Assembly (NCBI GenBank): GCA_025458905.1
Contig: JALORN010000016.1
Location: forward strand, 1-64,000
Direction of reading: 5' to 3'
DNA: 64,000 nucleotides
From: Steroidobacteraceae bacterium
Lineage (GTDB): Bacteria > Pseudomonadota > Gammaproteobacteria > Steroidobacterales > Steroidobacteraceae
Position 1 is the stretch's first letter. Each line of letters starts with the position of its first letter. The translations under genes were made by a program, and so were the position numbers. A model generated the notes under the pieces. The model did no database searches and was not told the origin of the DNA. It was given only the letters and a program-made list of their open reading frames with translations. This document shows, piece by piece, positions 26,940 to 62,954 of the stretch.

Positions 26940-27006
26940 CCGATGGTGGCGCGGCATCCCGCGCTGCCCGCGCTTGCCGCCCGCGGCCCGCCGCTGCCGC
27001 CGGCGC

Positions 27007-27021
27007 GGAACTGCGTCACGC
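27007..27021. promoter_or_regulatory. Candidate flagellar activator box between flgA and flgB
   Basis: GGAACTGCGTCACGC on the plus strand is GCGTGACGCAGTTCC on the minus strand. The same GCGTGACGC core occurs upstream of the fleR-like, fliL and fliM sigma-54 promoters and upstream of fliC. The centre lies about 83 bp from the flgB start and 143 bp from the flgA start, so one box may serve both promoters. Confidence 0.6.
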
Positions 27022-27073
27022 CCGGAGAGCCCGAAAGGCCGCATCCGGCCGCGGAAAGCCCGATCGGCGTCTC

Positions 27074-27089
27074 TGGCACGCAGCTTGCT
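27074..27089 (+). promoter_or_regulatory. Sigma-54 promoter of flgB operon
   Basis: TGGCACG (27074-27080), CAGC, TTGCT (27085-27089) is a perfect sigma-54 site with GG-N10-GC. The start is predicted at about 27100, 30 nt before the flgB ATG. Confidence 0.93.
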
Positions 27090-27102
27090 ACCTCCCACGC
27101 GA

Positions 27103-27116
27103 GACGGAATTCCGTC
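27103..27116 (+). other. Hairpin at 5' end of flgB mRNA
   Basis: GACGGAATTCCGTC is a perfect 14-bp palindrome starting about +4 of the predicted flgB transcript. In RNA it gives a 5-bp stem with an AATT loop. GGAGG, the flgB ribosome site, follows directly at 27117. Confidence 0.5.
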
Positions 27117-27129
27117 GGAGGCTGGCCCC

Positions 27130-27537
27130 ATGCTCGATCTCGACACCCACATCGGAGTGCACGCGGACGCGCTGCGCCTGCGCTCGCAGCGTGCCGAGCT
27201 GATCGCCGACAACCTCGCCAACGCCGACACGCCGAACTTCAAGGCGCGCGACCTCGACTTCCGTGCGGCGCTCGCCGCGGCGGGCCATGGGCAGGCTGGC
27301 GGCGGGCTCGCCCTGAGCACCACGCAGGGCGGGCACCTCGGCGGCCCGGGCGCGAACGCCGGTCCCGACGGCGCGCTGCGCTACCGGCAGCCGCTGGCGC
27401 CGGCGCTCGACGGCAACACCGTCGACGTGCAGGTCGAGCAGGCCTCGTTCGCGGAGAACGCGGTGCGCTACCAGGCGACGCTGACCTTCATCAACTCGCG
27501 GCTGCGCGGCCTGATGACCGCGATCACCGGCCAGTGA
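27130..27537 (+). CDS. flgB: Flagellar proximal rod protein FlgB
   Basis: The 135-residue protein forms part of the proximal rod of the flagellar basal body. It has the rod-protein motif ELIADNLANADTPNFKARDLDF near residue 20 and the C-terminal helix that coils with it (YQATLTFINSRLRGLMTAITGQ). It is exported by the flagellar type III system without a signal peptide. It heads the flgBCDEFGHIJKL run, behind a FliA and a sigma-54 promoter. Confidence 0.96.
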   Translation: MLDLDTHIGVHADALRLRSQRAELIADNLANADTPNFKARDLDFRAALAAAGHGQAGGGLALSTTQGGHLGGPGANAGPDGALRYRQPLAPALDGNTVDVQVEQASFAENAVRYQATLTFINSRLRGLMTAITGQ

Positions 27538-27554
27538 GCCGAGGAGCAGGCTGA

Positions 27555-27989
27555 ATGTCCACGTTCAAGGTGTTCGACATCGCCGGCTCCGGCATGGCGG
27601 CGCAGTCGGTACGCATCAACACGGTGGCGAGCAACCTCGCCAATGCCAACAGCGTCAGCGGCGACCCCGGCAAGGTGTACCGGGCACGCCATCCGGTCTT
27701 CGAGGCCGTGCGTGGCGCCGTCGGCGGCGCGCCGGGTGCGGCGCGCGCGGAAGCGAGCGCCGCAGTGCGCGTCGCCGGCATCGTCGAGGCGGACACGCCG
27801 GCGATGGCGCGCTACGAGCCGGGCAACCCGCTCGCCGACCCCAACGGCTACGTCTACGCGCCGAACGTCAACGTGGTCGAGGAGATGGTCGACATGATCT
27901 CGGCCTCGCGCTCGTACCAGAACAACGTCGAGGTGATGAACACCTCGAAGGACATGCTGCTCGCGACCCTGCGTCTCGGCCAGTCCTGA
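27555..27989 (+). CDS. flgC: Flagellar basal-body rod protein FlgC
   Basis: The 144-residue proximal rod protein has the N-terminal SGMAAQSVRINTVASNLANANS and the C-terminal VNVVEEMVDMISASRSYQNNVEVMNTSK typical of FlgC. The two ends form a coiled coil in the assembled rod. AGGAG precedes the ATG. It follows flgB by 17 nt. Confidence 0.96.
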   Translation: MSTFKVFDIAGSGMAAQSVRINTVASNLANANSVSGDPGKVYRARHPVFEAVRGAVGGAPGAARAEASAAVRVAGIVEADTPAMARYEPGNPLADPNGYVYAPNVNVVEEMVDMISASRSYQNNVEVMNTSKDMLLATLRLGQS

Positions 27990-28029
27990 GCCTCGACCCC
28001 GCCCCGAACCGCCACCGGAGTAGCCCGCG

Positions 28030-28707
28030 ATGTCACTCGCCTCAGTCGTCTCCTCGACCGCCACCGACGCGCTGCGCGGCCGTTCCACGGCAGCCGCCGG
28101 CGGCGCGCAGGGCACCGAGCTCGGCCAGGATGCGTTCCTGACCTTGATGCTCGCGCAGCTGCGCAACCAGGACCCCTTGAAGCCGCTCGAGCCGTCCGAG
28201 TTCCTCGGCCAGCTCGCGCAGTTCAGCTCCGTGACCGGCATCCAGGGGATGAAGGAGTCGGTCGGCGAGCTGGCGGGTTCGCTGCGCTCCTCGCAGGTGC
28301 TCGAGGGCGCGACGCTGGTCGGCCGCAACGTTCTGGCCGTCGGCGACGGCGGCCGGCTCGGTGCGAGCGGCGGCATCGCCGGGGCCGTCGCGACGCCCGC
28401 CGGCGCGACCCGCATCGACCTCGCGGTGCGCGACGCTTCCGGGGCGCTGGTGCGCCAGCTGAGCCTTCCACCGCAGGACGGCATGACTCCGTTCAACTGG
28501 GACGGACTCGACGCCCGGGGCAACCGCATGCCCGCCGGCAGCTATCGCCTGGAGGCCGTCGCGAGCGGCGGTGGCCGCAGCGAGTCGGCCGAGACGCTGC
28601 TCCAGCGCCGGGTGGAGAGCGTGAGCTTCGACCCGGCCGCTGGCGGCCTGACCCTGAACACGGCCGGGGGCGCGCTGGCCCTCGGCGACGTGCGCCGCGT
28701 GATGTGA
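28030..28707 (+). CDS. flgD: Flagellar hook capping protein FlgD
   Basis: The 225-residue protein is the scaffold that caps the growing hook and is discarded later. The N-terminal export region contains GQDAFLTLMLAQLRNQDPLKPLE (split by its conserved DPL) and FLGQLAQFSSVTGIQ. The C-terminal part carries a FlgD Ig-like and Tudor-like region (PFNWDGLDARGNRMPAGSYRL). It lies 40 nt after flgC. Confidence 0.95.
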   Translation: MSLASVVSSTATDALRGRSTAAAGGAQGTELGQDAFLTLMLAQLRNQDPLKPLEPSEFLGQLAQFSSVTGIQGMKESVGELAGSLRSSQVLEGATLVGRNVLAVGDGGRLGASGGIAGAVATPAGATRIDLAVRDASGALVRQLSLPPQDGMTPFNWDGLDARGNRMPAGSYRLEAVASGGGRSESAETLLQRRVESVSFDPAAGGLTLNTAGGALALGDVRRVM

Positions 28708-28747
28708 GCCGCGGGCACCGAGATCCCCTTCCGACAGGAGACACTGC

Positions 28748-29965
28748 ATGTCCTTCCGTACCGCCATCTCTGGCCTGAACGCCGCCACCGCCGACCTCTC
28801 CGTGACGGCGAACAACATCGCCAACACCAGCACCGTCGGCTTCAAGGGCTCCCGGGTGCAGTTCGCCGAGCTGTTCGCGGTGTCCGCGACCGGCACCAGC
28901 AACACCCAGGCCGGCAACGGCGTGCGGGTCGCGGACGTCGCACAGCAGTTCACCCAGGGCAACATCGACTTCACCGACAACAGCCTCGACATGGCGATCA
29001 GCGGCGAGGGCTTCTTCATCCTGAGCGATGGCGGGGCGCAGGTGTACTCGCGCGCCGGCGCCTTCCAGGTCGACCGCGACGGCTATGTGGTCAACTCGCG
29101 CGGCCAGCGCCTGCAGGCCTTCCCGCCGACCCCGCAGGGCAGCTTCAACACGGGCGCGCTGTCGGACCTGCGCCTGGTGACCGGCGAGAGCCCGCCGACC
29201 GCGACCGAGAACGTCGAGGTGGTGCTGAACCTGCCGTCCAACGCCACGCCGCCCACCGTGCCCACCTTCAGCCCGACCGATCCCGACAGCTATACGCACT
29301 CGACGTCGATGACGGTGTACGACTCGCTCGGCTCGGCGCACACGGCGACGATCTACTTCAACAAGACCGCGACCGTGAACGAATGGACCCAGCGCCTCTA
29401 CGTCGACGGCACGGCCGTCGGTGCGCCGCAGACGCTGACCTACTCGAACACCGGCGTGCTGCAGGCGCCCGTCGGCGGCCTGATCACCTTCCCGCCCTAC
29501 ACGCCCGCCACCGGCGCCGCGCCGCTCACGCTGTCCTACGACTTCGGCGACACGACCCAGTACGGCCAGACCTTCACCGTCAACTCCGTGGTGCAGGACG
29601 GCTACACGACGGGCCGCCTGATCGGCATCGACACCGACAACTCGGGGGTGGTGCAGGCGCGCTTCACCAACGGCCGCTCGCTCGCCCTCGGCCAGGTCGC
29701 GCTGGCGCAGTTCGCGAATCCCAACGGCCTGCAGCAGCTCGGCGACACCAACTGGTCGGAGACCTTCGCCTCGGGCCAGGCGCTGCGCGGCTCGGCCGGC
29801 AGCGCCGGCCTCGGCATGGTCCAGTCGGGCGCGCTCGAGGCCTCGAACGTGGACATCACCGAGCAGCTGGTGTCGATGATCACCGCGCAGCGCAACTTCC
29901 AGGCGAACGCGCAGATGATCCAGACCAACGACGCGATCACGCAGACGATCATCAACATCCGCTGA
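28748..29965 (+). CDS. flgE: Flagellar hook protein FlgE
   Basis: The 405-residue protein polymerises into the flexible hook. It begins [20 protein letters not shown] with the rod/hook motif [14 protein letters not shown] and ends with the D0 helix ([20 protein letters not shown], then [15 protein letters not shown]). The middle carries the D1-D2 insert. The length is usual for FlgE. CAGGAGA precedes the ATG. Confidence 0.97.
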
Positions 29966-29986
29966 TAGACCCGGGGCGACACGACG

Positions 29987-30727
29987 ATGGACAAGTCGAT
30001 CTACGTGGCGATGAGTGGCGCGAAGGAAGTGCTGCGCGCCCAGGCGGCGAACAACCACAACCTCGCCAACGCCACGACGACCGGCTTCCGCGCCGACCTC
30101 AGCGCGTTCATGAGCCGCGCGGTCGAAGGCCCGGGGCATGCGTCGCGCGCCTATGCCACCACCTCGACCCTCGGCTGGAGCCGCGACGGCGGCTCCGTCG
30201 TCGCCACCGGCCGCGACCTCGACGTCGCGGTCGATGGCGACGGCTGGATCGCGGTTCAGGGGCCGGACGGGCGCGAGGCCTACACGCGCGCCGGCAACCT
30301 GCACGTCGACGTCAACGGGCAGCTGCTGACGGCGACCGGCCGGCCGGTGCTCGGCGACGGCGGTCCGCTGGTGGTGCCGCCGAGCACCGCGGTGTCGATC
30401 GGCACCGACGGCTCGATCTCGGTGGTGCCGGCCGGGCAGGGACCGGCGACGGTGGCGACGGTCGGGCGGATCAAGCTCGTGAATCCGCCCGCGGAGGCGC
30501 TGGAACGCGGCACCGACGGGCTGTTCCGCCAGAAGGACGGCCAGGACGCGCCGGCGGATGCCGCGGTGCGCGTGGTGCCCGGCGCGCTCGAGTCGAGCAA
30601 CGTCAATGCCGCCGGCGCGATGGTCAACATGATCGAGCTGTCGCGGCAGTTCGAGATGCAGATGAAGTCGATCCGCACCGCCGAGGACGACGCGCGCACG
30701 GCCTCGAGCCTGCTGCGGCTCGGCTGA
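29987..30727 (+). CDS. flgF: Flagellar proximal rod protein FlgF
   Basis: The 246-residue rod protein starts [20 protein letters not shown] with [19 protein letters not shown] and ends [25 protein letters not shown]. The D-type insert contains [20 protein letters not shown], as in FlgF. The initial [11 protein letters not shown] distinguishes it from FlgG. It follows flgE by 21 nt. Confidence 0.96.
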
Positions 30728-30768
30728 CGGACCGCGACGGCAACCCCGAACACGACCGAGGACACACC

Positions 30769-31554
30769 ATGGATCCCGCACTCTGGGCCGCGAAGACCGG
30801 CCTCGACGCCCAACAGACCCGGATGGCCGTCACGGCCAACAACCTCGCCAACGTCAGCACGACCGGCTTCAAGCGCGGCCGCGCGGTGTTCGAGGACCTG
30901 CTGTACCAGAACGTGCGGCAGGTGGGCGCCGCCGGCACCCAGGACACGCAGCTGCCCTCGGGCCTGTCCCTCGGCACCGGCACCCGCGTCGTGGCGACCG
31001 AGAAGCTGCACACGCAGGGCAACATGCAGGTCACCGGCAACTCGCTCGACCTCGCGGTCGCCGGTCGTGGCTTCTTCCAGGTGCTCTTGCCCGACGGCAC
31101 GACCGGCTTCACGCGCGACGGCAGCTTCCAGGTCAACGCGCAGGGCGAGCTCGTCACCTCCGCCGGCTACGTGGTCCAGCCGAACATCACGATCCCCGCG
31201 GGGGCGCAGTCGATCACGGTCGGCACCGACGGCGTGGTGACGGTACAGCTGGCCGGGCAGGCCGCCGCGACGCAGATCGGCTCCGTCCAGCTGGTCGACT
31301 TCATCAACGCCGCCGGGCTGCAGCCCCGCGGCGAGAACCTGCTGCTCGAGTCCGCCGCGAGCGGCCCGCCGCAGGTGGGGACGCCGGGCCTCGACGGCCT
31401 CGGCACGATCCAGCAGGGCTCGCTGGAGGCCTCGAACGTGAACGTGGTCGAGGAGCTGGTGTCGATGATCGAGACCCAGCGCGCCTACGAGATGAACTCG
31501 AAGGCCATCTCGACCACCGACCAGATGCTCGAATACCTGACGACCCGGCTCTGA
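30769..31554 (+). CDS. flgG: Flagellar distal rod protein FlgG
   Basis: The 261-residue distal rod protein has [21 protein letters not shown] at the N-terminus with the FlgG-specific [10 protein letters not shown] stretch, and the C-terminal [23 protein letters not shown] (continuing to the last residue). The FlgG sequence rather than FlgF is indicated by [23 protein letters not shown] 30769 lies 41 nt after flgF. Confidence 0.97.
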
Positions 31555-31569
31555 ACCGTGCGGAGCACC

Positions 31570-32268
31570 ATGCGCCCCCTCATCGCCCGCCTCGCCGCAG
31601 TGCTGCCGCGGCTCGCCCTGGCCGCCGCGCTGGCAGCCACCGCCGGATGTGCCGGCTTCGGTGCCGAGCACGGCCCGGCGGAGCCGGAGATGCCCGAGCT
31701 CGCCGCGGCGCCGCCTTCGGGCAACGGCGCGATCTACCAGGCGGGCTACGAGGCACCGCTGTTCGAGAACCCGACGGCGCGCCGTGCCGGCGACATCCTC
31801 ACGATCCGCTTGGTGGAAAACACCAACGCCTCGAAGAGCTCGAGCACCTCGACCTCCAAGGCGACCGCCGTGACGCTGCCGGGTCCGACGATCGGCGGAC
31901 GGCCCGTGACCGTGAACGGCACCGCGATCCTCAGCGGCGGGGTCGAGAACGAGGCGAGCTTCGACGGCGAAGGCTCGAGCCGCCAGAGCAACCGGCTGAA
32001 CGGCGACCTCACGGTCACGGTCGTGCGCCGCCTGCCCAACGGCACGCTGCTGGTGCGCGGCGAGAAGTGGATCACGATCAACCAGGGCCGCGAACTGGTG
32101 CGCGTCAGCGGCCTGGTGCGGCAGATCGACGTCGAGCCCGACAACACCGTGCCCTCGTCGAAGGTCGCCAACGCATCGATCACCTACGTCGGCAAGGGCG
32201 CGCTCGCGGACGCGAGCGCCCCGAGCTGGCTCGCGCGCTTCTTCATGTCGCCGAAGCTGCCGTTCTGA
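31570..32268 (+). CDS. flgH: Flagellar L-ring lipoprotein FlgH
   Basis: The 232-residue outer-membrane lipoprotein forms the L ring. A lipoprotein signal ends in LAATAGC with the lipidated cysteine at residue 27. The conserved body includes [30 protein letters not shown] and [23 protein letters not shown] 31570 is preferred over GTG 31558 because CGGAG lies 5 nt before it. Confidence 0.95.
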
Positions 32269-32279
32269 GGATCCCGACG

Positions 32280-33434
32280 ATGTACGTACGAGTGTTGATG
32301 CTGGTCGCCTGCGCGCTGCTGGCGACGGTCGTCTCGGCTGCGACGACGCCGGCCGGAGCGGGCGGCGTCACCGGGCGCGCGAGCCTGCCCCGCGAGCGCG
32401 TCAAGGACCTCGCATCGGTGGCGGGCGTGCGCAGCAACCAGCTGGTCGGCTACGGGCTGGTCGTCGGCCTCGACGGCACCGGCGACCAGACCGCCCAGAC
32501 TCCGTTCACGGTGCAGAGCATCAAGAACATGCTGGCGCGCTTCGGCGTGCCGATCCCGCCCAACCTCAACCCGCAGCTGACGAACGTCGCGGCGGTCACG
32601 GTGAGTGCCGAGCTGCCGCCGTTCGCCAAGCCCGGCCAGACGATCGACGTCACGGTGGCCTCGATCGGCAACGCCGGCAGCCTGCGCGGTGGCACGCTGC
32701 TGATGGCGCCGCTGCGCGGCGCCGACGGCGAGGTGTACGCCATGGCGCAGGGCAACCTGATCGTCAGCGGCTTCGGCGTCTCGGGCAAGGATGGCTCGAG
32801 GATCGCGCTGAACGTGCCGAGCGGCGGCACGATCCCCAACGGCGCGACCGTCGAGCGCGCGGTGCCGACCAGCTTCGCCACCGAGCCGTACGTCACGCTG
32901 AACCTGAACACGCCGGACTTCACCACCGCGACGCGCCTCGCCGCCGGCATCAACGGCCTGCTCGGCGACGGGACGGCGACACCGGTCGACGCGGTATCGG
33001 TGCGGGTAGCGGCGCCGGTCGACCCGGGCCAGCGGATCGCCTACGTCGCGACGCTGGAGAACGTCGAGATCGAGCCGGGCGCGGCGCCGGCGCGGGTGAT
33101 CGTCAACTCCAGGACCGGCACGGTCGTCATCGGCGCCGACGTGCGCGTGATGCCAGCGGCGGTGTCCCACGGCTCGCTGTCGGTGACCATCACGGAGCGT
33201 ACCGACGTCAGCCAGCCGAACGCGTTCGCCGAGGGCAGCACGGTCGCCGTGCCGCGCTCGAACGTGAGTGCCGAGTCGCCGCCCGCGCGCATGTTCAAGT
33301 TCGAGGCCGGCGTGTCACTCGACGAGCTGGTGCAGGCCGTGAACCGCGTGGGCGCGGCACCCGGCGACCTCGTGGCGATCCTCGAGGCGCTGAAGCAGGC
33401 GGGCGCGCTGCGCGCCGAGCTGATCGTGATCTGA
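32280..33434 (+). CDS. flgI: Flagellar P-ring protein FlgI
   Basis: The 384-residue periplasmic protein forms the P ring around the rod. A signal peptide ([16 protein letters not shown]) is followed by the highly conserved [20 protein letters not shown] and [11 protein letters not shown]. Its folding needs FlgA, encoded at 26 kb. It lies 11 nt after flgH. Confidence 0.97.
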
Positions 33435-33441
33435 GGCCGCC

Positions 33442-37549: not shown

Positions 37550-37565
37550 CCGTGACGCAGGTCGC
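37550..37565 (+). promoter_or_regulatory. Candidate flagellar activator box upstream of fliC
   Basis: CCGTGACGCAGGTCGC differs from the fleR-like upstream box GCGTGACGCAGTTCGC at two of 16 positions. It begins 4 nt after the flgL stop and lies upstream of the fliC FliA promoter. Confidence 0.45.
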
Positions 37566-37596
37566 AGAACGGCGACGGTGGCACTGTACCGCGCCC

Positions 37597-42438: not shown

Positions 42439-42587
42439 ATCAGGGCGCGGCGCAACTAGTGGCAACCCCGATTCGCCGCGAAGTGTGATCCGTTCTTCAT
42501 CGTGCGGCGGATGAATGCCGCGGCGGCGCACGTCCGCTGCTTGCACGACCCAACAGAATCGTTCCCACGAGACGAGGAACGAGACCC

Positions 42588-43871
42588 GTGACGACCGTTG
42601 CCGCTTCTGCCATCGACCGACCCGAGACCCCGCCGCGCGCCGACAGCCGCGCGCGCCTGCCGACCGGCCGCTCCGCGGCGATCCGCGAGGTGCTGCACCT
42701 CGTGCAGCAGGTGGCCGCGCACGACTCGAGCGTCCTGGTGCTCGGTGAGTCCGGCACCGGCAAGGAGGTCGTGGCGCGCGCCATCCACGACTCGAGCCGC
42801 CGCCGCAACGCACCGTTCGTCGCCGTGAACTGCGGTGCGATCCCGGCCGACCTGCTGGAGAGCGAACTGTTCGGCCACGAGAAAGGGTCCTTCACCGGCG
42901 CCTACTCGACGCGCAAGGGCCGGTTCGAGATCGCCGAGGGGGGCACGCTGTTCCTCGACGAGATCGGCGACATGAGCCTGCCGATGCAGGTCAAGCTGCT
43001 GCGGGTGCTGCAGGAACGCGTCTTCGAGCGGGTCGGCAACCACCAGCCGATCTGCTGCAACGTCCGCATCATCGCCGCGACGCACCGCAACCTCGACGAG
43101 GCGATCCTTGGCGGCCAGTTCCGGGGCGACCTCTTCTACCGCCTCAACGTGTTCCCGATCGAGATGCCGAGCCTGCGCGAGCGCCTCGACGACCTGGACC
43201 AGCTGATCGCGGAGTTCGTCGAGCAGAACCGCGAGGCCGGGCGCGAGCCCATCGTGCTGACACCGGCGGCGATGAGCGTCCTGCGCCACCACGCCTGGCC
43301 GGGCAACGTCCGCGAGCTGGCGAACCTCGTGGAGCGGCTGAGCATCCTGCACGGCGGTCGCGTGGTCGACGTCGGCCAGCTCCCGCCGCGCTACCGGCCG
43401 GCGGCGCTGCTCGAGGAACTCGCGCTGCCATCGCCGCTCGCCGCACTGCCCGTCACGCTGCCCGTGGCGGATCCGGCGGCCGCACCGCTCCTCGAGCCGC
43501 GCTACGGGTCGCTGCGCGAGGCCTTCCCCGACGCGATGCCGCGCGGTGTCACCGCGGGCGCCGGGGTAGAGGCCGAGTCCTGCCCCGACGGGACGGGCAT
43601 GGAGCTCGATCCCGAGGCGACGCTGGCGCTGCTCGACGACCGGCTCCCGCGCGAGGCGTGCGCGGGCGACCTCGTGGACCTGCCGGCCGAGGGCATCGAC
43701 CTGCGCGCCCACCTGTTCGCGATCGAGCACCGGCTGATCAGCCAGGCGATGCAGCGCTCCGGTGGCACGGTCGCGCAGGCGGCGCGGCTGCTGGGCCTGC
43801 GTCGCACCACGCTGGTCGAGAAGCTGCGCAAGTTCGGCATCGGCGGCAGCGAGGCGCTGTCGGAAGCTTGA
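42588..43871 (+). CDS. Sigma-54-dependent activator, FleQ/FlrA-like, lacking the N-terminal domain
   Basis: The 427-residue protein has an AAA+ sigma-54 interaction domain from about residue 26 and a Fis-type helix-turn-helix at the C-terminus ([22 protein letters not shown]). Walker A GESGTGKE is near residue 53, the sigma-54 contact loop reads GSFTGA near residue 100, and Walker B is [10 protein letters not shown] linker of about 100 residues separates AAA+ and HTH. The N-terminal FleQ regulatory domain is absent: only about 26 residues precede the AAA+ core. GTG 42588 has GAGG 10 nt upstream. By position it is the candidate flagellar master activator. Confidence 0.85.
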
Positions 43872-43896
43872 CGCCGCCGGCGCGCCGCCGCCGTCC

Positions 43897-43913
43897 TGCG
43901 TGACGCAGTTCGC
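43897..43913 (+). promoter_or_regulatory. Candidate flagellar activator box upstream of fleR-like gene
   Basis: TGCGTGACGCAGTTCGC begins with the perfect 11-bp palindrome TGCGT-G-ACGCA (43897-43907). Its centre is about 59 bp before the predicted transcript start, the same distance as the box upstream of fliM. Confidence 0.65.
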
Positions 43914-43934
43914 GTCCCGCGGCAAGGAAAGGGC

Positions 43935-43950
43935 CGGCATGCTTCTTGCT
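43935..43950 (+). promoter_or_regulatory. Sigma-54 promoter of fleR-like gene and fliEFGHIJK
   Basis: CGGCATG, CTTC, TTGCT (GG 43936-43937, GC 43948-43949, 10 nt apart) fits sigma-54 consensus with one change in the -24 block. The predicted start is about 43961. Confidence 0.8.
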
Positions 43951-43953
43951 CCT

Positions 43954-43988
43954 CTCTGGTCCGGGCGTCCCTGCGGTGGGGACCGGAG
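43954..43988 (+). other. Hairpin enclosing the ribosome site of the fleR-like mRNA
   Basis: CTCTGGTCC (43954-43962) pairs with GGACCGGAG (43980-43988), with one T-G pair. GGAG at 43985-43988 is the only ribosome site for ATG 43997 and lies in the 3' arm. The 5' arm straddles the predicted transcript start, so folding depends on the exact start site. Confidence 0.4.
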
Positions 43989-43996
43989 ACCGAGAG

Positions 43997-45007
<1,011 letters not shown>

Positions 45008-50605: not shown

Positions 50606-51643
50606 ATGGGCAGTGCATGGGCCGCAGTCGGAACCGCCGCCTCCAGCGCCACTGGCGGAGCGCGCGACGCGGCGCCCGCACCCGCCGGGGCGCCGAGCGA
50701 CGGCGCCACGTCGTTCGCGGAGGTCATGGAGGCGCAGGACAAGCCCGCGTCGCCGGCCGAGGCCGCGGACGAGCCGGAGGCCGGCCCGCCGACCGATCCA
50801 CGGGCCGAGGACTCCGCGGCGCACGACATCGACACACTGCTCGAGCTCTGTGGCGCGCCGGCCGCCGAGACGGACGGCGACGCCATCGCAGGGAGCGACG
50901 TAGGCCCGGCCCCGGCGTGCCCGGACTCGACGATGTCCGTGCCGGTCATGCTGCCCGCACCACCGCGGCAGGCTCCGGTGCCCGCCACGGCCGGACGCGG
51001 CGAGCCGCCGACCGAGCGCAGCGCGCTGCAGGGCATCGGCGGTATGTCGACAGACGCGGCGACCCTGGCGGCGGTCGTCGTTCCCGACGACCGCGGTGGG
51101 TCACGGGATACAGCCGAGGGGACGGGCGCGACCGACTTGCCCGAGTCTCCCCTGGGCGGCGCGACGGTGGACGGCCGCACGGCGACCCGGGTCGGCAGCG
51201 GCGAGCCGGCGACGGCGGGGCGCGCGCCGGAGCTGCGCGCGCCGGTGGGCACGCCAGCATGGGCGGACGAGCTCGGGGCGCGCGTCACCTGGATGGTGGA
51301 GCGGGGCGAACAGGTGGCGTCACTGCGACTCTCGCCCGAGAACCTCGGGCCGCTGGAAGTACGCATCGCCGTGCGCGAAGGCGAGACGACGGTGTGGTTC
51401 GGCGCCGCGCAGGCCGACACCCGCGCCGCGCTGGAGCAGTCGCTGCCGCGGCTGCGGGAGATGCTCGGCGCCTCGGGCCTCGCGCTGGCCAACGCCGGTG
51501 TGTTCAGCCAGACGCCCCGCGATCCCCAGCGCGGCTTCACCGCCGCCGCCCTGGCACGCGCCTCGCAGGAGTCCGGCGCCGAGGCCGTGGGCGCGACCGT
51601 GACGCCATTCACGGGCCGCGGGCTCGTCGACCTCTACGCCTGA
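50606..51643 (+). CDS. fliK: Flagellar hook-length control protein FliK
   Basis: The 345-residue secreted ruler switches export from hook to filament proteins. The first 210 residues are low-complexity, Ala/Pro/Gly/Asp-rich. The C-terminal domain is conserved: LRLSPENLGPLEVRIAVREG, VWFGAAQADTRAALEQSLPR and LREMLGASGLALANAGVF. The gene ends the fleR-fliEFGHIJK run; a perfect hairpin follows. Confidence 0.93.
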   Translation: MGSAWAAVGTAASSATGGARDAAPAPAGAPSDGATSFAEVMEAQDKPASPAEAADEPEAGPPTDPRAEDSAAHDIDTLLELCGAPAAETDGDAIAGSDVGPAPACPDSTMSVPVMLPAPPRQAPVPATAGRGEPPTERSALQGIGGMSTDAATLAAVVVPDDRGGSRDTAEGTGATDLPESPLGGATVDGRTATRVGSGEPATAGRAPELRAPVGTPAWADELGARVTWMVERGEQVASLRLSPENLGPLEVRIAVREGETTVWFGAAQADTRAALEQSLPRLREMLGASGLALANAGVFSQTPRDPQRGFTAAALARASQESGAEAVGATVTPFTGRGLVDLYA

Positions 51644-51689: not shown

Positions 51690-51706
51690 TGCGTGACGCG
51701 CGTCTC
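51690..51706 (+). promoter_or_regulatory. Candidate flagellar activator box upstream of fliL
   Basis: TGCGTGACGCGCGTCTC shares the GCGTGACGC core with the other boxes. The centre is about 48 bp before the predicted transcript start, one helical turn closer than at the fleR-like gene and fliM. Confidence 0.6.
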
Positions 51707-51716
51707 GTTCCGCCCA

Positions 51717-51732
51717 TGGCACGGCTATTGCT
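51717..51732 (+). promoter_or_regulatory. Sigma-54 promoter of the fliL operon
   Basis: TGGCACG, GCTA, TTGCT is a perfect sigma-54 site (GG 51718-51719, GC 51730-51731). The predicted start is about 51743, which rules out the in-frame GTG at 51745 as the fliL start. Confidence 0.93.
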
Positions 51733-51743: not shown

Positions 51744-51759
51744 GGTGTCGCGTGACACC
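51744..51759 (+). other. Hairpin at the 5' end of fliL mRNA
   Basis: GGTGTC, GCGT, GACACC forms a perfect 6-bp stem with a tetraloop beginning at about +1 or +2 of the predicted transcript, 18 nt before the fliL ATG. Confidence 0.5.
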
Positions 51760-51777
51760 GCACGACAGGTCCCATCC

Positions 51778-52290
51778 ATGGCCAAGGCTGAAGCAGCTGC
51801 CGTCGAACTCGCCGACGGCGACGCCCCGAAGAAGGGCGGCAAGGGAAAGCTGATCCTGATCGCGGCACTCGCGCTGGTGGTCGTCGGCGGCGGAGCCGGC
51901 GGGTTCTTCTACTGGAAGTCGACGCAGGGCGGCGCGCACGCCAAGCAGGAAGAGCCCAAGGCGGTGCTGCCGCTGCAGTTCGTGCCGCTCGATCCACCGT
52001 TCGTCGTCAACTTCTCGGGCCAGCAGACGGTGCGCTTCCTGCAGGTCGAGGTGCGCCTCGCCAGCCGCGAGCTCGAGACCATCGAGCGGATGAAGGCCAA
52101 CGAGCCGGTGATCCGCAACGACCTGCTGCTGCTGTTCGGGCAGCAGGAGGCCGCGGAGCTCGCCACCCGCGAGGGCAAGGAGAAGCTGCGCAACGCGGCG
52201 CTCGAGCAGGTCCGCCGGATCGTGAAGGCGGAGGGCGGCAAGCCGGAGACGGTCGACTCCGTCTACTTCACCAGCTTCGTGATGCAGTGA
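51778..52290 (+). CDS. fliL: Flagellar basal-body-associated protein FliL
   Basis: The 170-residue single-pass inner-membrane protein surrounds and supports stator units. It has a short cytoplasmic N-terminus, a membrane helix (LILIAALALVVVGGGAGGFFYW) given here only as residues about 22-43, and a periplasmic stomatin-like domain (PPFVVNFSGQQTVRFLQVEV, LLLLFGQQEAAELATREGKE). The start is ATG 51778. The gene normally after it, fliM, is absent; fliN follows directly. Confidence 0.94.
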   Translation: MAKAEAAAVELADGDAPKKGGKGKLILIAALALVVVGGGAGGFFYWKSTQGGAHAKQEEPKAVLPLQFVPLDPPFVVNFSGQQTVRFLQVEVRLASRELETIERMKANEPVIRNDLLLLFGQQEAAELATREGKEKLRNAALEQVRRIVKAEGGKPETVDSVYFTSFVMQ

Positions 52291-56203: not shown

Positions 56204-56206
56204 GCC

Positions 56207-58297: not shown

Positions 58298-58312
58298 ACA
58301 GCGAGAAAGCCG

Positions 58313-59542
58313 ATGAAGATGAAGCGATACACCGCACCGGACATGCGCCAGGCGCTGAAGCGGGTCAGGGAGGAGCAGGGCGCCGATGCCGTGATCCTCT
58401 CGAGCCGCCGCGTCGACGGGCGGGTGGAGATCACGGTGGCGGTCGACGAGGACGCGGCACAGTCGCCGCCGGAGCCGGCGGTCGCGGCGGAAGGCGTGGT
58501 GCCGGCCGGCTTCGAGGCGCTGCTGGCGGCGCGCGGCCTCGCGGGCGATGCGGCGCGCGGCGCCGCGTCCGCGGTGGCCGCTCCGCCGCCGGGCGCCCCG
58601 CTCGCTGCCCAGGCCTCGGACGCGGTCAACGGGGAGCTGAAGACGCTGCGCCGCATGCTGGAGACCCAGCTCGCCGCGCTCGCCTGGAACGACCTCACGC
58701 GGCGCGCGCCGCTCGCCACCGAGCTGCTGCGCGAGCTGACCGAGATCGGCTTCGCTGCCGACGTCGCGGCCCAGGTCGCGGACCGACTGCCGCAGGGCCT
58801 CGACTTCACGGGCGCACGGCGCCTCGCGATCGCGCGCCTCGCCGATCGCGTGCAGGTCACCGGCGATCGCTGGTGCGAACACGGCGGCGTGGTCGCGCTG
58901 GTCGGCGCCTCCGGCGTCGGCAAGAGCGCCGCCATCGCCCGGCTCGCTGCCGGGTGGGTCATGCGGCACGGGCCCCAGTCGCTGGCGCTGGTCTCGGCCG
59001 ACGCCCAGCGCTTCGGCGCCCACGAGCAGACGGCGCGCCTCGGTCGGCTGCTCGGTGCGGCGACCTTCCGGATCGACGAGCTCTCGGAGCTGCCGGCGCT
59101 GCTCGGCCGTCTCGGCGACCACCGCTTCGTGCTGGTCGACACCGCCGGGGTGGGGCCGCGCGAGGCGAGCGTCGCGACGCTGGCCACGGGCCTGCAGCCG
59201 GTGCGGGCGCGGCTCGAGGTCGCGCTGGTGCTCGCGGCGTCGGCGCAGGCCGGTACGCTCGGGGAGACCGTCGGACGCTTCGCGCCGTTGCGGCCCGACG
59301 CCTGCGTGCTGACGCGCCTCGACGAGACCGCGAGCCTCGGCGGCGCGCTCTCGGTGCTGATGCGCGCCGCGATCCCGGTCGCCTACGTCAGCGAGGGCCC
59401 GGGCATACCCGACGACCTGCGGCCGGCGCGTGCGCTCGACCTGGTCTGCACCGCGGTGCAGCTCGCCGAGCGCCACGGCGCCGTCGCCGACGAGGACCTG
59501 CTGGCACGCCGCTTCGGGGGTTCGTTCCATGTCGCCTCGTGA
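58313..59542 (+). CDS. flhF: Flagellar SRP-like GTPase FlhF
   Basis: The 409-residue GTPase sets the polar position and number of flagella. It begins MKMKRYTAPDMRQALKRVRE, followed by a variable Ala/Pro-rich basic region and the NG domain with Walker A GASGVGKSAAIARLA near residue 198, DTAGVGPRE and TRLDETASLGG. Its presence next to flhG indicates polar flagellation. Confidence 0.95.
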   Translation: MKMKRYTAPDMRQALKRVREEQGADAVILSSRRVDGRVEITVAVDEDAAQSPPEPAVAAEGVVPAGFEALLAARGLAGDAARGAASAVAAPPPGAPLAAQASDAVNGELKTLRRMLETQLAALAWNDLTRRAPLATELLRELTEIGFAADVAAQVADRLPQGLDFTGARRLAIARLADRVQVTGDRWCEHGGVVALVGASGVGKSAAIARLAAGWVMRHGPQSLALVSADAQRFGAHEQTARLGRLLGAATFRIDELSELPALLGRLGDHRFVLVDTAGVGPREASVATLATGLQPVRARLEVALVLAASAQAGTLGETVGRFAPLRPDACVLTRLDETASLGGALSVLMRAAIPVAYVSEGPGIPDDLRPARALDLVCTAVQLAERHGAVADEDLLARRFGGSFHVAS

Positions 59543-60413
59543 CTCGCAGCGCAAAGAGCCCGCGCGCCAGCGCCGCGCGGCCGCCCCGGCCGTGCAGGTG
59601 ATCGCCGTGACGGGCGGCAAGGGCGGAGTGGGGAAGTCTTCCGTCAGCGTCAACCTCGCGACCGCGTTCGCGCAGCTCGGCCGCCGCACCTTGCTGCTGG
59701 ACGGCGACCTCGGCCTCGCCAACGCCGACGTGCTGCTCGGCCTGACACCGCGGCACACCCTCGCGCACGTGGTGCGCGGCGAGCGATCGATGCAGGAGAT
59801 CCTGGTCGACGCCCCCCAGGGCTTCCAGGTGGTACCCGCGGCCTCGGGCATCGCGCAGATGGCGGCGTTGTCGGCCGTCGAGCACCTCGGGATCGTGCGC
59901 GAGCTCGCGACGGTCTGCGCCGACCTCGAGACCCTGGTGGTGGACACGCCGGCGGGTATCGCGCCCGGGGTGCTGCAGCTGGTGCAGGCCGCGCAGCACG
60001 TGCTGGTGGTGGTCTGCGACGAGCCGACCTCGATCACCGACGCCTATGCGCTGATGAAGGTGCTGCGGCGCGACCACGGGGTGGGAAGCTTCCGCGTGCT
60101 CGCCAACCTGGTCCGCGAGCGCGGCCAGGGCCGCCGGCTGTTCGAGACGCTCAGCCGCGTCACCGGCCGCTTCCTCGACGTGACGCTCGACTACGCAGGC
60201 GAGGTGCCCGAGGACCCCTGGCTGAGACGCTCGATCCGCGACCAGCGCCCCGTGGTCGATGCCTACCCGGCGAGCCCGTCGGCGCGCGCGCTGCGGACGC
60301 TCGCCGAGACCGCCGACGGCTGGCCGTTGCCGCACGGCACCCGCGGCAACATCGAGTTCTTCGCCGAGCGCCTGGTGCGACGTCCGGCGACGACGCTGGA
60401 GGTGGTGCGGTGA
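59529..60413 (+). CDS. flhG: Flagellar number regulator FlhG (FleN)
   Basis: The 294-residue MinD/ParA-type ATPase limits flagellar number, with FlhF, and in Pseudomonas antagonises FleQ. It has the deviant Walker A TGGKGGVGKSSVSVNLA near residue 28, LLDGDLGLANADVLLG and VDTPAGIAPGVL. An N-terminal basic tail with a glutamine (DSQRKEPARQRR) resembles the FlhF-activating segment of FlhG. It overlaps flhF by 14 nt and fliA by 4 nt. Its usual partner FleQ is altered in this genome. Confidence 0.95.
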   Translation: MSPRDSQRKEPARQRRAAAPAVQVIAVTGGKGGVGKSSVSVNLATAFAQLGRRTLLLDGDLGLANADVLLGLTPRHTLAHVVRGERSMQEILVDAPQGFQVVPAASGIAQMAALSAVEHLGIVRELATVCADLETLVVDTPAGIAPGVLQLVQAAQHVLVVVCDEPTSITDAYALMKVLRRDHGVGSFRVLANLVRERGQGRRLFETLSRVTGRFLDVTLDYAGEVPEDPWLRRSIRDQRPVVDAYPASPSARALRTLAETADGWPLPHGTRGNIEFFAERLVRRPATTLEVVR

Positions 60414-61141
60414 GCCCGGTGCGCGCGTACTCCACCGCCGGCGCCAGGACCTCGGAGGCCGACGCGCTGGTGCTGCGCCATGCCGAGCTGGTGAAGCGCA
60501 TCGCCTATCATCTCGCCGGGCGCCTGCCGCCGTCGGTCGACGTCGACGACCTGATCCAGGCGGGCATGCTCGGCCTGCTCGAGGCCGCGAAGCACTTCAC
60601 CGCGGGGCGCGGCGCGAGCTTCGAGACCTACGCCGGCATCCGCATCCGCGGCTCGATGATCGACGCGCTGCGCAAGCTCGACTGGGCCCCGCGCTCGGTG
60701 CACCGCAAGGCGCGCGACGTCGCGCAGGCGATCCGCGAACTCGAGCGCGAGACCGGGCGCGAGGCGCGCGACGTGGAGGTGGCCGCGCGCATGGGACTGC
60801 CGCTCGAGGACTACCACCGCATCGTGCAGGACTCGGCGAGCTGCCAGCTCGCGAGCCTCGACGACGGGCATGGCGTGGACCGCGGCGACGAGACGCTCGA
60901 CCCGTTCCGCGAGACCGTCGAGGACGGCTTCCGCGTGGCTCTGGCGCGCGCGATCGAGGAGCTGCCGGAGCGCGAGCGCCTCGTGATGTCGCTCTACTAC
61001 CAGGACGAGCTCAACCTCAAGGAGATCGGGCTCGTGCTCAAGGTCACGGAGTCGCGGGTCTGCCAGCTGCACGGCCAGGCGCTGACGCGCCTCAAGGCAC
61101 GGCTCGCCGACTGGCGCGACCGGGCCGGGACCCGAGCCTGA
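60410..61141 (+). CDS. fliA: RNA polymerase sigma factor FliA (sigma-28)
   Basis: The 243-residue sigma factor directs late flagellar genes. Region 2 reads LVKRIAYHLAGRLPPSVDVD with DDLIQAGMLGLLEAAKHF and SFETYAGIRIRGSMIDALRK. Region 4 reads ERERLVMSLYYQDELNLKEI and LKVTESRVCQLHGQAL. It is held by FlgM (26 kb). FliA-type promoters lie before flgM, flgB, fliC and fliS. GTG 60410 overlaps the flhG stop. Confidence 0.97.
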   Translation: MSPVRAYSTAGARTSEADALVLRHAELVKRIAYHLAGRLPPSVDVDDLIQAGMLGLLEAAKHFTAGRGASFETYAGIRIRGSMIDALRKLDWAPRSVHRKARDVAQAIRELERETGREARDVEVAARMGLPLEDYHRIVQDSASCQLASLDDGHGVDRGDETLDPFRETVEDGFRVALARAIEELPERERLVMSLYYQDELNLKEIGLVLKVTESRVCQLHGQALTRLKARLADWRDRAGTRA

Positions 61142-61162
61142 GCATGCGCCGCGCTCCCCACC

Positions 61163-61169
61163 GCCGATA
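61163..61169 (+). promoter_or_regulatory. Possible FliA -10 element upstream of the stator genes
   Basis: GCCGATA, the exact FliA -10 consensus, lies 15 nt before the MotC-type ATG. The -35 region at 14-nt spacing reads ATGCG and does not match, so this is only a candidate. Confidence 0.25.
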
Positions 61170-61184
61170 CGGACGGCAATCCCG

Positions 61185-61944
61185 ATGGACCTCCTGACCC
61201 TCGTCGGATTCGTGTTCGCGATCCTCGCGATCGTCGTCGGCTCCATCCTCAAGGGGGCCGGCGTCGGGGCGCTGCTGTCGGGCGCCGCCTTCATGATCGT
61301 CGTGGTCGGCACCTTCGCGGCCATCCTGGTGCAGACGCCGCTGCCCGTGCTGCGCCACGGCATGCGCATGTTCGGCTGGATCATCCGCCCGCCGCGGATC
61401 GACGGGCGCAGCCTGATCGGCAAGATCGTCGAGTGGAGCAACATCGCCCGCAAGCAGGGCCTGCTCGGCCTCGAGCCGAGCATCGGCTCCGAGAGCGACC
61501 CGTTCGTGCGCAAGGCGCTGCAGCTGGTGGTCGACGGCACCGAGCCAGAGCAGATCCGCTCGATCATGGAGGTGGAGCTGTCGGCGCGCGAGCACGCCGA
61601 CCACGCTCGGCCTCATGGCGGTGATGCAGAACCTCGCCGACCCGAGCAAGCTCGGCGCCGGCATCGCCGCGGCCTTCACGGCGACCGTCTACGGCATCGG
61701 GCTCGCCAACCTGCTGTTCCTGCCGGCCGCGGCCAAGCTGAAGGCCATCGTCGCGCGGCAGTCGCAGACGCGCGAGATGGTGATCGAGGGGATGATCTCC
61801 ATCGCCCTCGGCGAGAACCCGCGCTCGATCGAATCCAAGCTGCAGGGATACCTGCACGACAGAGGGGAGCCGCCGTGGCACGCCGCAAGCCGACCGAGGA
61901 ACACACCAACCACGAGGCGTGGGCGATCCCCTACGGCGACCTGA
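61185..61944 (+). pseudogene. motC: Flagellar stator subunit MotC (MotA family), disrupted by internal deletion and frameshift
   Basis: Codons 1-140 read as a normal MotC N-terminus (MDLLTLVGFVFAILAIVVGS, LLGLEPSIGSESDPFVRKAL, SIMEVELSAREHAD). At about 61600 the frame fails: the rest of the protein (TLGLMAVMQNLADPSKLGAG, LLFLPAAAKLKAIVARQS, ALGENPRSIESKLQGYL) continues in the +1 frame from 61603. Compared with MotC proteins, about 20-23 residues are missing at the junction, including the GGYAPTIGIIG block that starts the third membrane helix with its key proline. The distal frame also runs on to 61944, 70 nt into motD, instead of stopping after LQGYLHD. As read, no functional MotC can be made. 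An assembly error is the alternative. Confidence 0.8.
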
Positions 61945-62861
61945 TCACGCTGCTGCTCGCGTTCTTCGTCGTGATGTACGCGATCTCCTCGGTCAACGCC
62001 GGCAAGTACCGGGTGGTGTCCGAGTCGCTGGCCTCGGCGTTCCGCGGCACGCCCCAGACCTCCGACCCCATCGCCCTCGGCGAGAGCCTGCGCGGGCCGG
62101 CCACCGAGCCGCAGGCCGCGGTCTCCTCGCTGCCGAACCACGTCGGTTCGCCGCGCTCCGTGATCGCCTCCGTCCCGGTGCCGGCCGAGACGGCGTCCGC
62201 CCAGCGCGTCGCGCAGCTCGGCGCGGTCGCGCGCGAGGTCGAGCAGGCCATGGCATCGCTGGTGATGCAGGACCAGGTCGTGGTGCGCAACCACGGCGAC
62301 TGGGTCGAGGTGGAACTGCGCACCGACATGCTGTTCGGCAGCGGCTCGGCGACCCTGGCGCCGGCGGCCGAGGGCGTGATCTCGCAGCTGGCCGAAGTGC
62401 TGCGGCCCGCGCCCAACCCGATCCGGGTCGAAGGGCACACCGACGACGTGCCGATCCGCAGTGCCGCGTTCCCGAGCAACTGGGAGCTGTCGGCGGCGCG
62501 CTCGGCGAGCGTGGTGCGCCTGCTCGCCAGCGGGGGCGTCGATCCATCGCGCCTGGCCGTGCTCGGCCTCGGGGAGTTCCGGCCGGCGGCCAGCAATGCC
62601 ACGCCGGAGGGACGCAATGCCAACCGGCGGGTGCTGCTGATCATCCTCGGCAGCGACAACGCGCCCGAGGGCGGCTATGCGGCAGAGCGCGGGCCGGCGC
62701 AGGACGACGGCCCGGCATCGCCACGCAGCGGCGCGGCCGCGGCGGCCGCCACCGCGGCCGCAACGCCGGAGGGTGCCGCGGCGGCGCCGACGCCCGGGGC
62801 CGCGCCGGCAGCGGCTCCCGCTGCGCCCCCGTCGCCCGCGACCGGGCCCGCAGGCGAGTGA
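61875..62861 (+). CDS. motD: Flagellar stator subunit MotD (MotB family)
   Basis: The 328-residue protein anchors the stator to peptidoglycan. It has WAIPYGDLITLLLAFFVVMY, whose aspartate is the proton-binding residue, followed by YAISSVNAGKYRVVSES as in MotD of Pseudomonas, and an OmpA-like domain (VEGHTDDVPIRSAAFPSNWE, LGLGEFRPAASNATPEGRN). A tail of about 65 Ala/Pro-rich residues follows. GTG 61875 has AGGGGAG about 6 nt upstream. The start is in the same frame as the MotC N-terminus only because of the MotC frameshift, so an apparent 558-codon fusion is an artefact of that lesion. Confidence 0.9.
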   Translation: MARRKPTEEHTNHEAWAIPYGDLITLLLAFFVVMYAISSVNAGKYRVVSESLASAFRGTPQTSDPIALGESLRGPATEPQAAVSSLPNHVGSPRSVIASVPVPAETASAQRVAQLGAVAREVEQAMASLVMQDQVVVRNHGDWVEVELRTDMLFGSGSATLAPAAEGVISQLAEVLRPAPNPIRVEGHTDDVPIRSAAFPSNWELSAARSASVVRLLASGGVDPSRLAVLGLGEFRPAASNATPEGRNANRRVLLIILGSDNAPEGGYAAERGPAQDDGPASPRSGAAAAAATAAATPEGAAAAPTPGAAPAAAPAAPPSPATGPAGE

Positions 62862-62916
62862 CGCGCAGGCGAGGGCGCGGATGCCAGCGTCAAGCCTCCG
62901 GCGCCACGTGGCACGA

Positions 62917-62933
62917 AGCGTGATGCGCGTCGC
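62917..62933 (+). promoter_or_regulatory. Candidate flagellar activator box upstream of fliM
   Basis: AGCGTGATGCGCGTCGC shares 14 of 17 positions with the fliL box. Its centre is about 59 bp before the predicted fliM transcript start. Confidence 0.55.
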
Positions 62934-62954
62934 GTTCCCGGACGCCGCGATCCA

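What the first reader, a model, noticed from the sequence alone, without database searches (positions are those of the whole stretch)
26995..62940. A shared palindromic box (core GCGTGACGC) upstream of the sigma-54 flagellar promoters
Near-identical 15-17-bp elements occur at 27007-27021 (flgA/flgB, minus orientation), 43897-43913 (fleR-like), 51690-51706 (fliL) and 62917-62933 (fliM), and a weaker copy at 37550-37565 (fliC). The best copy is the perfect palindrome TGCGT-G-ACGCA. Centres lie about 59, 48, 59 and 83 bp before the predicted starts of the fleR-like gene, fliL, fliM and flgB. This is the expected layout for a sigma-54 enhancer-binding protein. It does not match the FleQ site I know of, so it may be the operator of the truncated FleQ-like protein.
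Basis: partly seen in the sequence, partly recalled or inferred. Interest (0 to 1): 0.8.

Follow-up and report, generated by a model that had tools for sequence, protein, structure and literature searches.

The report
CRP-type sites across flagellar promoters
The repeated DNA box in front of these flagellar genes is real, but relatives suggest it is a landing site for the global regulator CRP, placed at several levels of the flagellum gene cascade, rather than the private operator of the flagellar activator protein.

Summary
The five copies are real and correctly placed. The 9-bp core alone is not enriched; an extended form fitted to the sites occurs in the window only at those five places. 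The window belongs to a Steroidobacteraceae-type gammaproteobacterium. The genome encodes a CRP over NCBI's equivalog cut-off, with a perfect site at its own promoter.

Against an operator of the FleQ-like or FleR-like activator: (1) the box also precedes the sigma-28 fliC promoter, centred 54.5-56.5 bp from its -10 element in 10 of 13 clade upstreams and 58.5 bp in the window; (2) relative G014, sister to the window lineage, keeps both activators with the same recognition helices but shows no box at fleR, flgB, fliL or fliC.

Best reading: accessory CRP sites spread through a cascade that lacks FleS and whose FleR lacks a receiver domain. The window's own copies match CRP weakly (2-4 mismatches of 10). 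Binding, and whether CRP activates or represses, is untested.

The parts
27005..27020 (-). CRP-like box between divergent flgA and flgB (CGTGACGCAGTTCCGC on the minus strand, 4 mismatches of 10); centre 61.5 bp from the flgB -24 and 113.5 bp from the flgA -24
   Evidence: the nearest relative G017 has CGTGAACTGCGTCACT in flgB orientation at the same 61.5 bp
37551..37566 (+). CRP-like box upstream of fliC (CGTGACGCAGGTCGCA, 2 mismatches); centre 58.5 bp from CCGATA of the sigma-28-like promoter
   Evidence: relatives at 54.5-56.5 bp
43899..43914 (+). CRP-like box upstream of the fleR-like gene (CGTGACGCAGTTCGCG, 3 mismatches); centre 28.5 bp from the -24
   Evidence: G017 CGTGACGCCGTTCACA (1 mismatch) at 28.5
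51692..51707 (+). CRP-like box upstream of fliL, promoter-proximal (CGTGACGCGCGTCTCG, 3 mismatches); centre 17.5 bp from the -24
   Evidence: G017 TGTGACCTGCGTCTCG at 18.5
51598..51613 (+).
62919..62934 (+). CRP-like box upstream of fliM (CGTGATGCGCGTCGCG, 3 mismatches); centre 28.5 bp from the -24
42484..42499 (+). Weak CRP-like sequence upstream of fleQ (TGTGATCCGTTCTTCA, 3 mismatches); uncertain
   Evidence: a box with 2 mismatches or fewer lies upstream of fleQ in 13 of 23 loci examined
27074..27089 (+). sigma-54 promoter of flgB (TGGCACGCAGCTTGCT)
26884..26899 (-). sigma-54 promoter of flgA (TGGCACGTGCCTTGCT)
43935..43950 (+). sigma-54 promoter of the fleR-like gene (CGGCATGCTTCTTGCT)
51717..51732 (+). 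sigma-54 promoter of fliL (TGGCACGGCTATTGCT)
62955..62970 (+). sigma-54 promoter of fliM (TGGCACGGCGCTTGCT)
43859..43872 (+). Candidate FleQ-like element GTCGGAAGCTTGAC overlapping the fleQ stop codon, centre 69 bp from the fleR -24; weak evidence
   Evidence: published FleQ inverted repeats GTCAAT/ATTGAC (PMC10723142, passages); the GTC-Nk-GAC spacing test was not specific
42588..43871 (+). FleQ-like sigma-54 activator without N-terminal FleQ/receiver domain (AAA+ and Fis-type HTH)
43997..45007 (+). FleR-like sigma-54 activator without receiver domain

Best explanation
The box is a binding site for the cAMP receptor protein CRP (TGTGA-N6-TCACA), present in this Steroidobacteraceae lineage in front of flagellar operons of several tiers: fleR, fliL, fliM and flgA/flgB (sigma-54), fliC (sigma-28), and in part of the clade fleQ. 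Shown by sequence: the box, the dyad seen in relatives, its conservation and restricted positions, a CRP gene with canonical recognition helix, and its absence from a sister lineage that keeps both activators. Inferred: CRP binds the box; FleQ and FleR still supply the ATPase step at sigma-54 promoters; CRP acts as an accessory protein by bending DNA and/or contacting RNA polymerase. At fliC it would contact E-sigma-28 from about -70. The sign is not shown; I favour activation. The cascade would thus be set by cAMP level in addition to FleQ/FleR, in a clade without FleS and with a receiver-less FleR.
For: GTGA-N6-TCAC in 18 of 55 upstream stretches of sigma-54-like sites from family loci and the window; at nine other spacings 0 (seven) or 1 (two); 0-1 in five random controls. 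Box with 2 mismatches or fewer at 49 of 64 flagellar sigma-54 promoters of the clade (FleR 25/28, FliL 10/13, FliM 6/7, FlgB 5/8, FlgA 3/8) against 1 of 14 unassigned sigma-54-like hits in the same loci; background 0.029 per 116 positions. fliC: centred 54.5 bp from CCGATA in 7 of 7 relatives printed (0-3 mismatches); 10 of 13 clade upstreams at 54.5-56.5 bp. CRP: NF008732 equivalog, 313 bits over a cut-off of 266; helix GCSREMAGRVL in all 30 loci looked at; perfect site at its own promoter; 26 near-consensus sites in the genome against 3 for the reversed pattern; two cyclase-domain (PF00211) proteins. CRP 93-98% identical in box-bearing G017, G026, G027, G032, G033, G036. G014 has no box at fleR, flgB, fliL or fliC although FleQ and FleR helices are unchanged and its FleR is sister to the window lineage. 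Precedents: CRP activates sigma-28 promoters aer and trg (PMC2859248); CRP binds V. cholerae fliK (PMC8753867).
Against: The window's own copies are among the weakest of the clade: 2 mismatches of 10 at fliC and distal fliL, 3 at fleR, proximal fliL and fliM, 4 at flgB. CRP presence does not predict the box: family members G025, G034 and G035 have CRP at 93, 94 and 89% and no box with 2 mismatches or fewer near flgB (L152, L156, L160); 17 of 23 order relatives have CRP at 84-90% (one partial). G030 has a good flgB box (L137) but no CRP match was found (74% complete). 0 of 41 stretches from non-clade loci hold exact GTGA-N6-TCAC; 1 of 29 loci with a long fleQ-fleR gap has a box with 2 mismatches or fewer (6 of the 29 had no convincing sigma-54 site). 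G014's CRP keeps the same helix. Non-clade fliC upstreams also give 7 of 24 at 2 mismatches or fewer. 3 of 13 other sigma-54 matches in the genome also have CGTGAYGC upstream. Helical phasing not shown (0.30 at 10.5 bp). From recall, CRP is often reported to repress sigma-54 promoters. No binding data.
Confidence: 0.72

Rival explanations
1. The box is the operator of the receiver-less FleQ-like activator, a drifted FleQ site: GTCA-N6-TGAC and GTGA-N6-TCAC share the 4-N6-4 plan.
For: Same spacing as the published FleQ repeats (PMC10723142 passages); lies before fleR, fliL and fliM, plausible FleQ targets. The separate FleQ-like element is only weakly supported.
Against: The FleQ helix RRTTLVE(K/R) is kept in most printed FleQ ends, with and without the box (exceptions L030, L091, L097); box present at sigma-28 fliC; box absent in G014; a candidate FleQ-like element lies at 58-71 bp in 15 of 28 fleR promoters.
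Confidence: 0.09
2. The box is the operator of the FleR-like activator, which would autoregulate and drive fliL, fliM and flgB.
For: No FleR operator was found in the passages and listings I saw, so the site cannot be compared; the box-bearing clade coincides with receiver-less FleR.
Against: FleR helix [18 protein letters not shown] is the same in box-less G014 and varies little in box-less outgroups; sigma-28 fliC and fleQ copies are not expected FleR targets.
Confidence: 0.09
3. Another CRP/FNR-family regulator, not the CRP equivalog, binds the box.
For: Nine cyclic-nucleotide-binding domain hits in the genome, seven over the cut-off, two in one frame; the window's boxes (CGTGA-N6-TCGCG-like) deviate from the perfect site at the crp promoter.
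Against: Only the C27 protein was tested against NCBIfam, and it passes the CRP equivalog; relatives' flagellar boxes reach the perfect CRP consensus.
Confidence: 0.08
4. Chance or base-composition effect in 72% G+C DNA.
For: The 9-mer core is as frequent as expected in this genome and under-represented at 1 mismatch; patterns were fitted after the fact.
Against: Conservation and restricted positions in relatives.
Confidence: 0.02

Closest known systems
CRP activation of sigma-28 promoters aer and trg in E. coli (PMC2859248, passages read)
   Same: CRP site upstream of a flagellar-class sigma-28 promoter at one fixed spacing
   Different: E. coli site at -49.5 and no clear CRP binding at fliC there; here at fliC, estimated about two helical turns further upstream, plus sigma-54 promoters
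CRP and CytR at the V. cholerae fliK promoter (PMC8753867, passages read)
   Same: CRP binds upstream of a flagellar operon in a FlrA/FlrC-type cascade
   Different: One promoter, together with CytR; here many promoters in several tiers
Vfr (CRP homolog) repressing fleQ in P. aeruginosa (review PMC8036289, passages read)
   Same: CRP-family control of the flagellar cascade
   Different: Acts negatively and at the top gene; here boxes recur downstream in the cascade
FleQ box of Pseudomonas (PMC10723142, passages read)
   Same: 4-N6-4 inverted repeat near flagellar promoters
   Different: GTCA/TGAC rather than GTGA/TCAC
FleQ/FleT pair of Rhodobacter sphaeroides Fla1 (PMC7277832, passages and abstract start read)
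   Same: Two sigma-54 activators, FleQ switching on an operon that holds the second
   Different: Its FleQ/FleT operator was not available to compare; relation of the proteins not tested

Membership tests
CRP binding site | Inverted repeat TGTGA-N6-TCACA | tested here: met
   Met in relatives (0-2 mismatches of 10 at 49 of 64 clade promoters); window copies have 2-4 mismatches, so membership of the window copies rests on orthology with relatives
CRP binding site | A CRP with canonical recognition helix in the genome | tested here: met
CRP binding site | cAMP-dependent binding | not testable with these tools
   needs gel shift or footprint
CRP binding site | Restricted position relative to the promoter | tested here: met
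   fliC 54.5 bp in 7 of 7 relatives; at sigma-54-like sites 42 of 50 distances fall in five clusters; helical periodicity not shown
FleQ box | GTCAAT-N2-ATTGAC inverted repeat | tested here: not met
   Box is GTGA-N6-TCAC; GTCA-N6-TGAC found in 0 of 55 family upstreams
sigma-54 enhancer-binding-protein operator | Found with sigma-54 promoters and retained wherever the activator is | tested here: not met
   Present at sigma-28-like fliC; absent in G014 with both activators kept

The most novel reading that the evidence does not exclude
In Steroidobacteraceae cAMP-CRP took over signal input of the flagellar cascade: FleR lost its receiver domain and FleS was lost (FleQ's N-terminal domain too in part of the clade), and CRP sites appeared before fleR, fliL/fliM, flgA/flgB and fliC, so that a catabolite signal gates sigma-54 and sigma-28 promoters directly, with CRP working as an accessory bender or contact protein for E-sigma-54.
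Probability: 0.3. Interest if true: 0.75.

Novelty: new variant of a known kind. Interest (0 to 1): 0.5.

Why it matters
Polar-flagellum cascades are usually described as gated by FleQ/FleN with c-di-GMP and by the FleS-FleR phosphorelay. A clade in which FleR has no receiver and FleS is missing, while a CRP site is repeated through the cascade, would show how a two-component input can be exchanged for a global cis-acting one. It would also give a natural set of sigma-54 promoters with CRP sites at several spacings, useful for asking whether CRP can help sigma-54 polymerase, and a named strain (Steroidobacter gossypii S1-65) in which to test it.

Tried and rejected
FleQ or FleR operator: set aside for the reasons given. 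Helical phasing at 10.5 bp: resultant 0.30, and the 66.5-bp fliL/fliM class is out of step. A CRP matrix from crp autoregulatory sites: too few, 8 of 30 upstreams had a site with 2 mismatches or fewer. A FleQ-box spacing test: GTC-Nk-GAC is not specific for k=8 (9 of 64 promoters at k=8, 10 at k=4, 8 at k=14), and the element overlaps the conserved end of fleQ, so it is only a candidate. A GGTGTC-GCGT-GACACC repeat downstream of the fliL -12: seen, not pursued. The binomial figures are not used, since related sequences are not independent.

Changed on re-checking: I first took both activators as receiver-less throughout the clade. Pfam finds no receiver in 7 of 7 clade FleR tested (window, L004, L031, L039, L043, L045, L052), but 6 of 30 clade FleQ frames have 111 or more extra N-terminal residues and one of them (L043) matches the FleQ N-terminal domain PF06490 over its cut-off; the other five do not at E 0.001. 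I therefore limit the claim to FleR and FleS, lowered the novel case from 0.35 to 0.3, and lowered the best explanation from 0.75 to 0.72 because the FleQ-like element is weaker than I had it.

Selections to know when reading counts: the 64 promoters come from the box-bearing clade; box-less L007 (G014) and L009 (G011) were left out there, and only 7 of 28 FlgB loci were passed on, plus L218. Over all 28 FlgB loci, 4 had a box with 2 mismatches or fewer within 130 bp of the flgB -24. One search has 67 rows, two of them duplicate genomes (L002 = L031, L003 = L034). In the 30-row clade, 25 have a box with 2 mismatches or fewer; L001 and L044 (3 mismatches each) were labelled as having it, giving 27. 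fleQ counts are measured from codon 16, include one repeated genome (L034, L219), and in L032, L037 and L042 the site is the one shared with the divergent fliM/fliL promoter. Background rates include the boxes themselves. L222, L223, L224 and L225 were fetched and not analysed further.

Absence from print: (open-licence PMC only; listings, of which a few papers were opened for passages) listed no paper on CRP sites throughout a flagellar sigma-54 cascade or on Steroidobacter flagellar regulation; most subscription papers are not held.
Full report
Where it is. The window is contig C53 of a 4.28-Mb, 109-contig assembly with 72% G+C. The closest relatives by the FleR-like protein are MAGs, several of them labelled Steroidobacteraceae or Steroidobacter, and Steroidobacter gossypii. 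The window holds a large flagellar cluster.

Check of the observation. All five boxes are present. Four stand before sigma-54 elements (27074, 43935, 51717, 62955; flgA at 26899 diverges from flgB), while fliC has a sigma-28-like element TCAAGTGAGGCCGGCACGTACCGATA. The 9-mer GCGTGACGC by itself is ordinary: 266 places in the genome, 5 in the window. The 13-bp form CGTGAYGC[AG][CG][GT]TC occurs only at the five sites, against a mean of 0.2 in 40 Markov sequences, but it was fitted to them. Among 18 strict sigma-54 matches of the genome, CGTGAYGC lies within 130 bp upstream in 8: the five flagellar ones and 3 of 13 others; a random 130-bp stretch of the window has it in 3.75%.

Relatives show the motif. 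Upstream of sigma-54-like sites in family loci the commonest inverted-repeat dyad is GTGA-N6-TCAC, in 18 of 55 stretches, with 0 or 1 at nine other spacings. Perfect TGTGA-N6-TCACA occurs upstream of fliM in L032, fliL in L037 and L042, and fleR in L046. The window copies are CGTGA-N6-TC(G/T/C).. forms of it. In the nearest relative G017 the same places read CGTGACGCCGTTCACA (fleR), TGTGACCTGCGTCTCG (fliL) and CGTGAACTGCGTCACT (flgB) at the same or nearly the same distances. The dyad axis is therefore inside the N6, not on the G of TGCGT-G-ACGCA.

Spread. At sigma-54 promoters of identified flagellar genes in the clade the box (2 mismatches or fewer) is present in 49 of 64, against 1 of 14 unassigned sigma-54-like hits (selections given under Tried and rejected). 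Of 50 box distances to the -24, 42 fall at 16.5-18.5 (7), 26.5-29.5 (15), 41.5 (6), 61.5-63.5 (4) or 66.5-67.5 bp (10). In G036 one box sits exactly between flgA and flgB, 62.5 bp from each.

Not only at sigma-54 promoters. At the sigma-28-like fliC promoter the box is centred 54.5 bp from CCGATA in 7 of 7 relatives printed, and 58.5 in the window. With further genomes, 13 clade fliC upstreams were examined: 9 have a box with 2 mismatches or fewer, and 10 have one with 3 or fewer at 54.5-56.5 bp; the other three are G014 (none), G033 (2 mismatches, no sigma-28 match found) and L053 (3 mismatches at 64.5). Non-clade fliC upstreams gave 7 of 24 with 2 mismatches or fewer, one of them perfect (L066) and one in G025 at 58.5 bp, so a fliC site may be older or wider than the sigma-54 ones. 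Upstream of fleQ a box with 2 mismatches or fewer is found in 13 of 23 loci, some shared with divergent operons.

A candidate FleQ element. FleQ of Pseudomonas binds GTCAAT/ATTGAC repeats (PMC10723142, passages). In 28 fleR promoters a GTC form of such an element is found in 6 and a GAC-N8-GAC form in 14; 15 of these 20 lie 58-71 bp from the -24, and the window has GTCGGAAGCTTGAC at 43859-43872. Box-less relatives L027, L029 and L030 carry a symmetric GTCG-N6-CGAC about 70 bp from the -24. But the spacing test was not specific and the element overlaps the end of fleQ, so it is a lead only.

The activators. The window's FleQ and FleR lack N-terminal domains. Pfam finds no receiver in 7 of 7 clade FleR tested, and a Response_reg domain in FleR of L056 and of family members G025 (L024) and G034 (L018). 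In L056 the gap between fleQ and fleR holds a histidine kinase; 29 loci have such long gaps, but only L056's was scanned. In the clade the gap is short in 29 of 30 (L050 has 1.3 kb; a 250-aa frame there gave no Pfam match). FleQ keeps an N-terminal FleQ domain in L043, and extra N-terminal length in five more, so FleQ truncation is not general. The recognition helices (FleQ RRTTLVE(K/R), FleR G(I)S.RTLRYK) vary little.

A natural control. In the FleR tree the Steroidobacteraceae-type clade has 30 rows, 27 labelled as having the box (25 at 2 mismatches or fewer); G014 and G011 are sister to the window plus G017. G014 keeps FleQ (63%) and FleR (69%) with the same helices but has no box at fleR, flgB, fliL or fliC; G011 has none at fleR or flgB, its fliL and fliC were not looked at. 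G014's CRP is 68% identical, against 93-98% in box-bearing genomes, but its CRP helix is also unchanged, and G025 and G034 have CRP at 93-94% with receiver-bearing FleR and no box near flgB. The box is thus dispensable to FleQ/FleR and looks accessory; CRP identity alone does not predict it.

CRP. The genome's C27 protein matches NF008732 (cAMP-activated CRP) at 313 bits, cut-off 266, and its best solved relatives are catabolite gene activator (CRP) and Vfr entries. It carries a perfect TGTGA-N6-TCACA at its own promoter. Near-consensus sites number 26 against 3 for the reversed pattern; in 13 genomes the count exceeds the control in all, but weakly in G035 (35 to 31) and G007 (24 to 18). Two cyclase-domain proteins are present. 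In G030 a flgB box was found without a CRP match (74% complete).

Mechanism, with status. Shown: sequence features above. Inferred: CRP-cAMP binds; at fleR it lies close upstream of the promoter, where it could bend DNA or touch polymerase. At fliC the site falls at roughly -70 if the start lies 8-10 bp past the CCGATA hexamer (my estimate), about two turns upstream of the -49.5 optimum found for E. coli aer (PMC2859248, passages). Sign unknown; from recall, CRP can repress sigma-54 promoters, and Vfr represses fleQ (PMC8036289, passages).

Known and new. CRP at sigma-28 promoters, CRP at a V. cholerae fliK promoter and Vfr at fleQ are known. CRP-type sites repeated through the tiers of a FleQ/FleR cascade, in a clade with receiver-less FleR and no FleS, were not found in the searches named under Tried and rejected. 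I file it as a new variant of a known kind.

Noticed in passing
window 42588-45007: FleQ-like and FleR-like activators of the window both lack N-terminal signal domains and no FleS gene lies between them; in relatives FleR lacks the receiver in the clade members tested, while FleQ of L043 keeps its N-terminal domain.
   Followed up: partly
window 43859-43872: FleQ-like GTC-N8-GAC element overlapping the fleQ stop codon; in many relatives GAC-N8-GAC at 58-71 bp from the fleR -24; spacing not shown to be specific.
   Followed up: partly
window 51745-52290 and from about 62990: fliL and fliM are about 11 kb apart, each with its own sigma-54 promoter and box; in some relatives a fliL/fliM unit diverges from fleQ and shares one box.
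   Followed up: no
window 51744-51759: Perfect inverted repeat GGTGTC-GCGT-GACACC just downstream of the fliL -12, containing another GTGAC.
   Followed up: no
L164 (G000:C2:32295-32310), L163 (G000:C2:29114-29129): Two strict sigma-54 matches before similar-looking small genes; one has a CRP-like box CGTGACCGGCGTCACG 71 bp upstream, and its product had no Pfam match.
   Followed up: no
L027, L028, L029, L030: Small-genome relatives carry a symmetric GTCG-N6-CGAC at the fleQ 3' end and no CRP-like box at fleR; L030's FleQ helix reads LPRTTFIERLRK.
   Followed up: no
L066 fliC upstream: A perfect TGTGAACTAGATCACA lies upstream of fliC in a Pseudomonadales MAG outside the clade, 167 bp from the start.
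   Followed up: no
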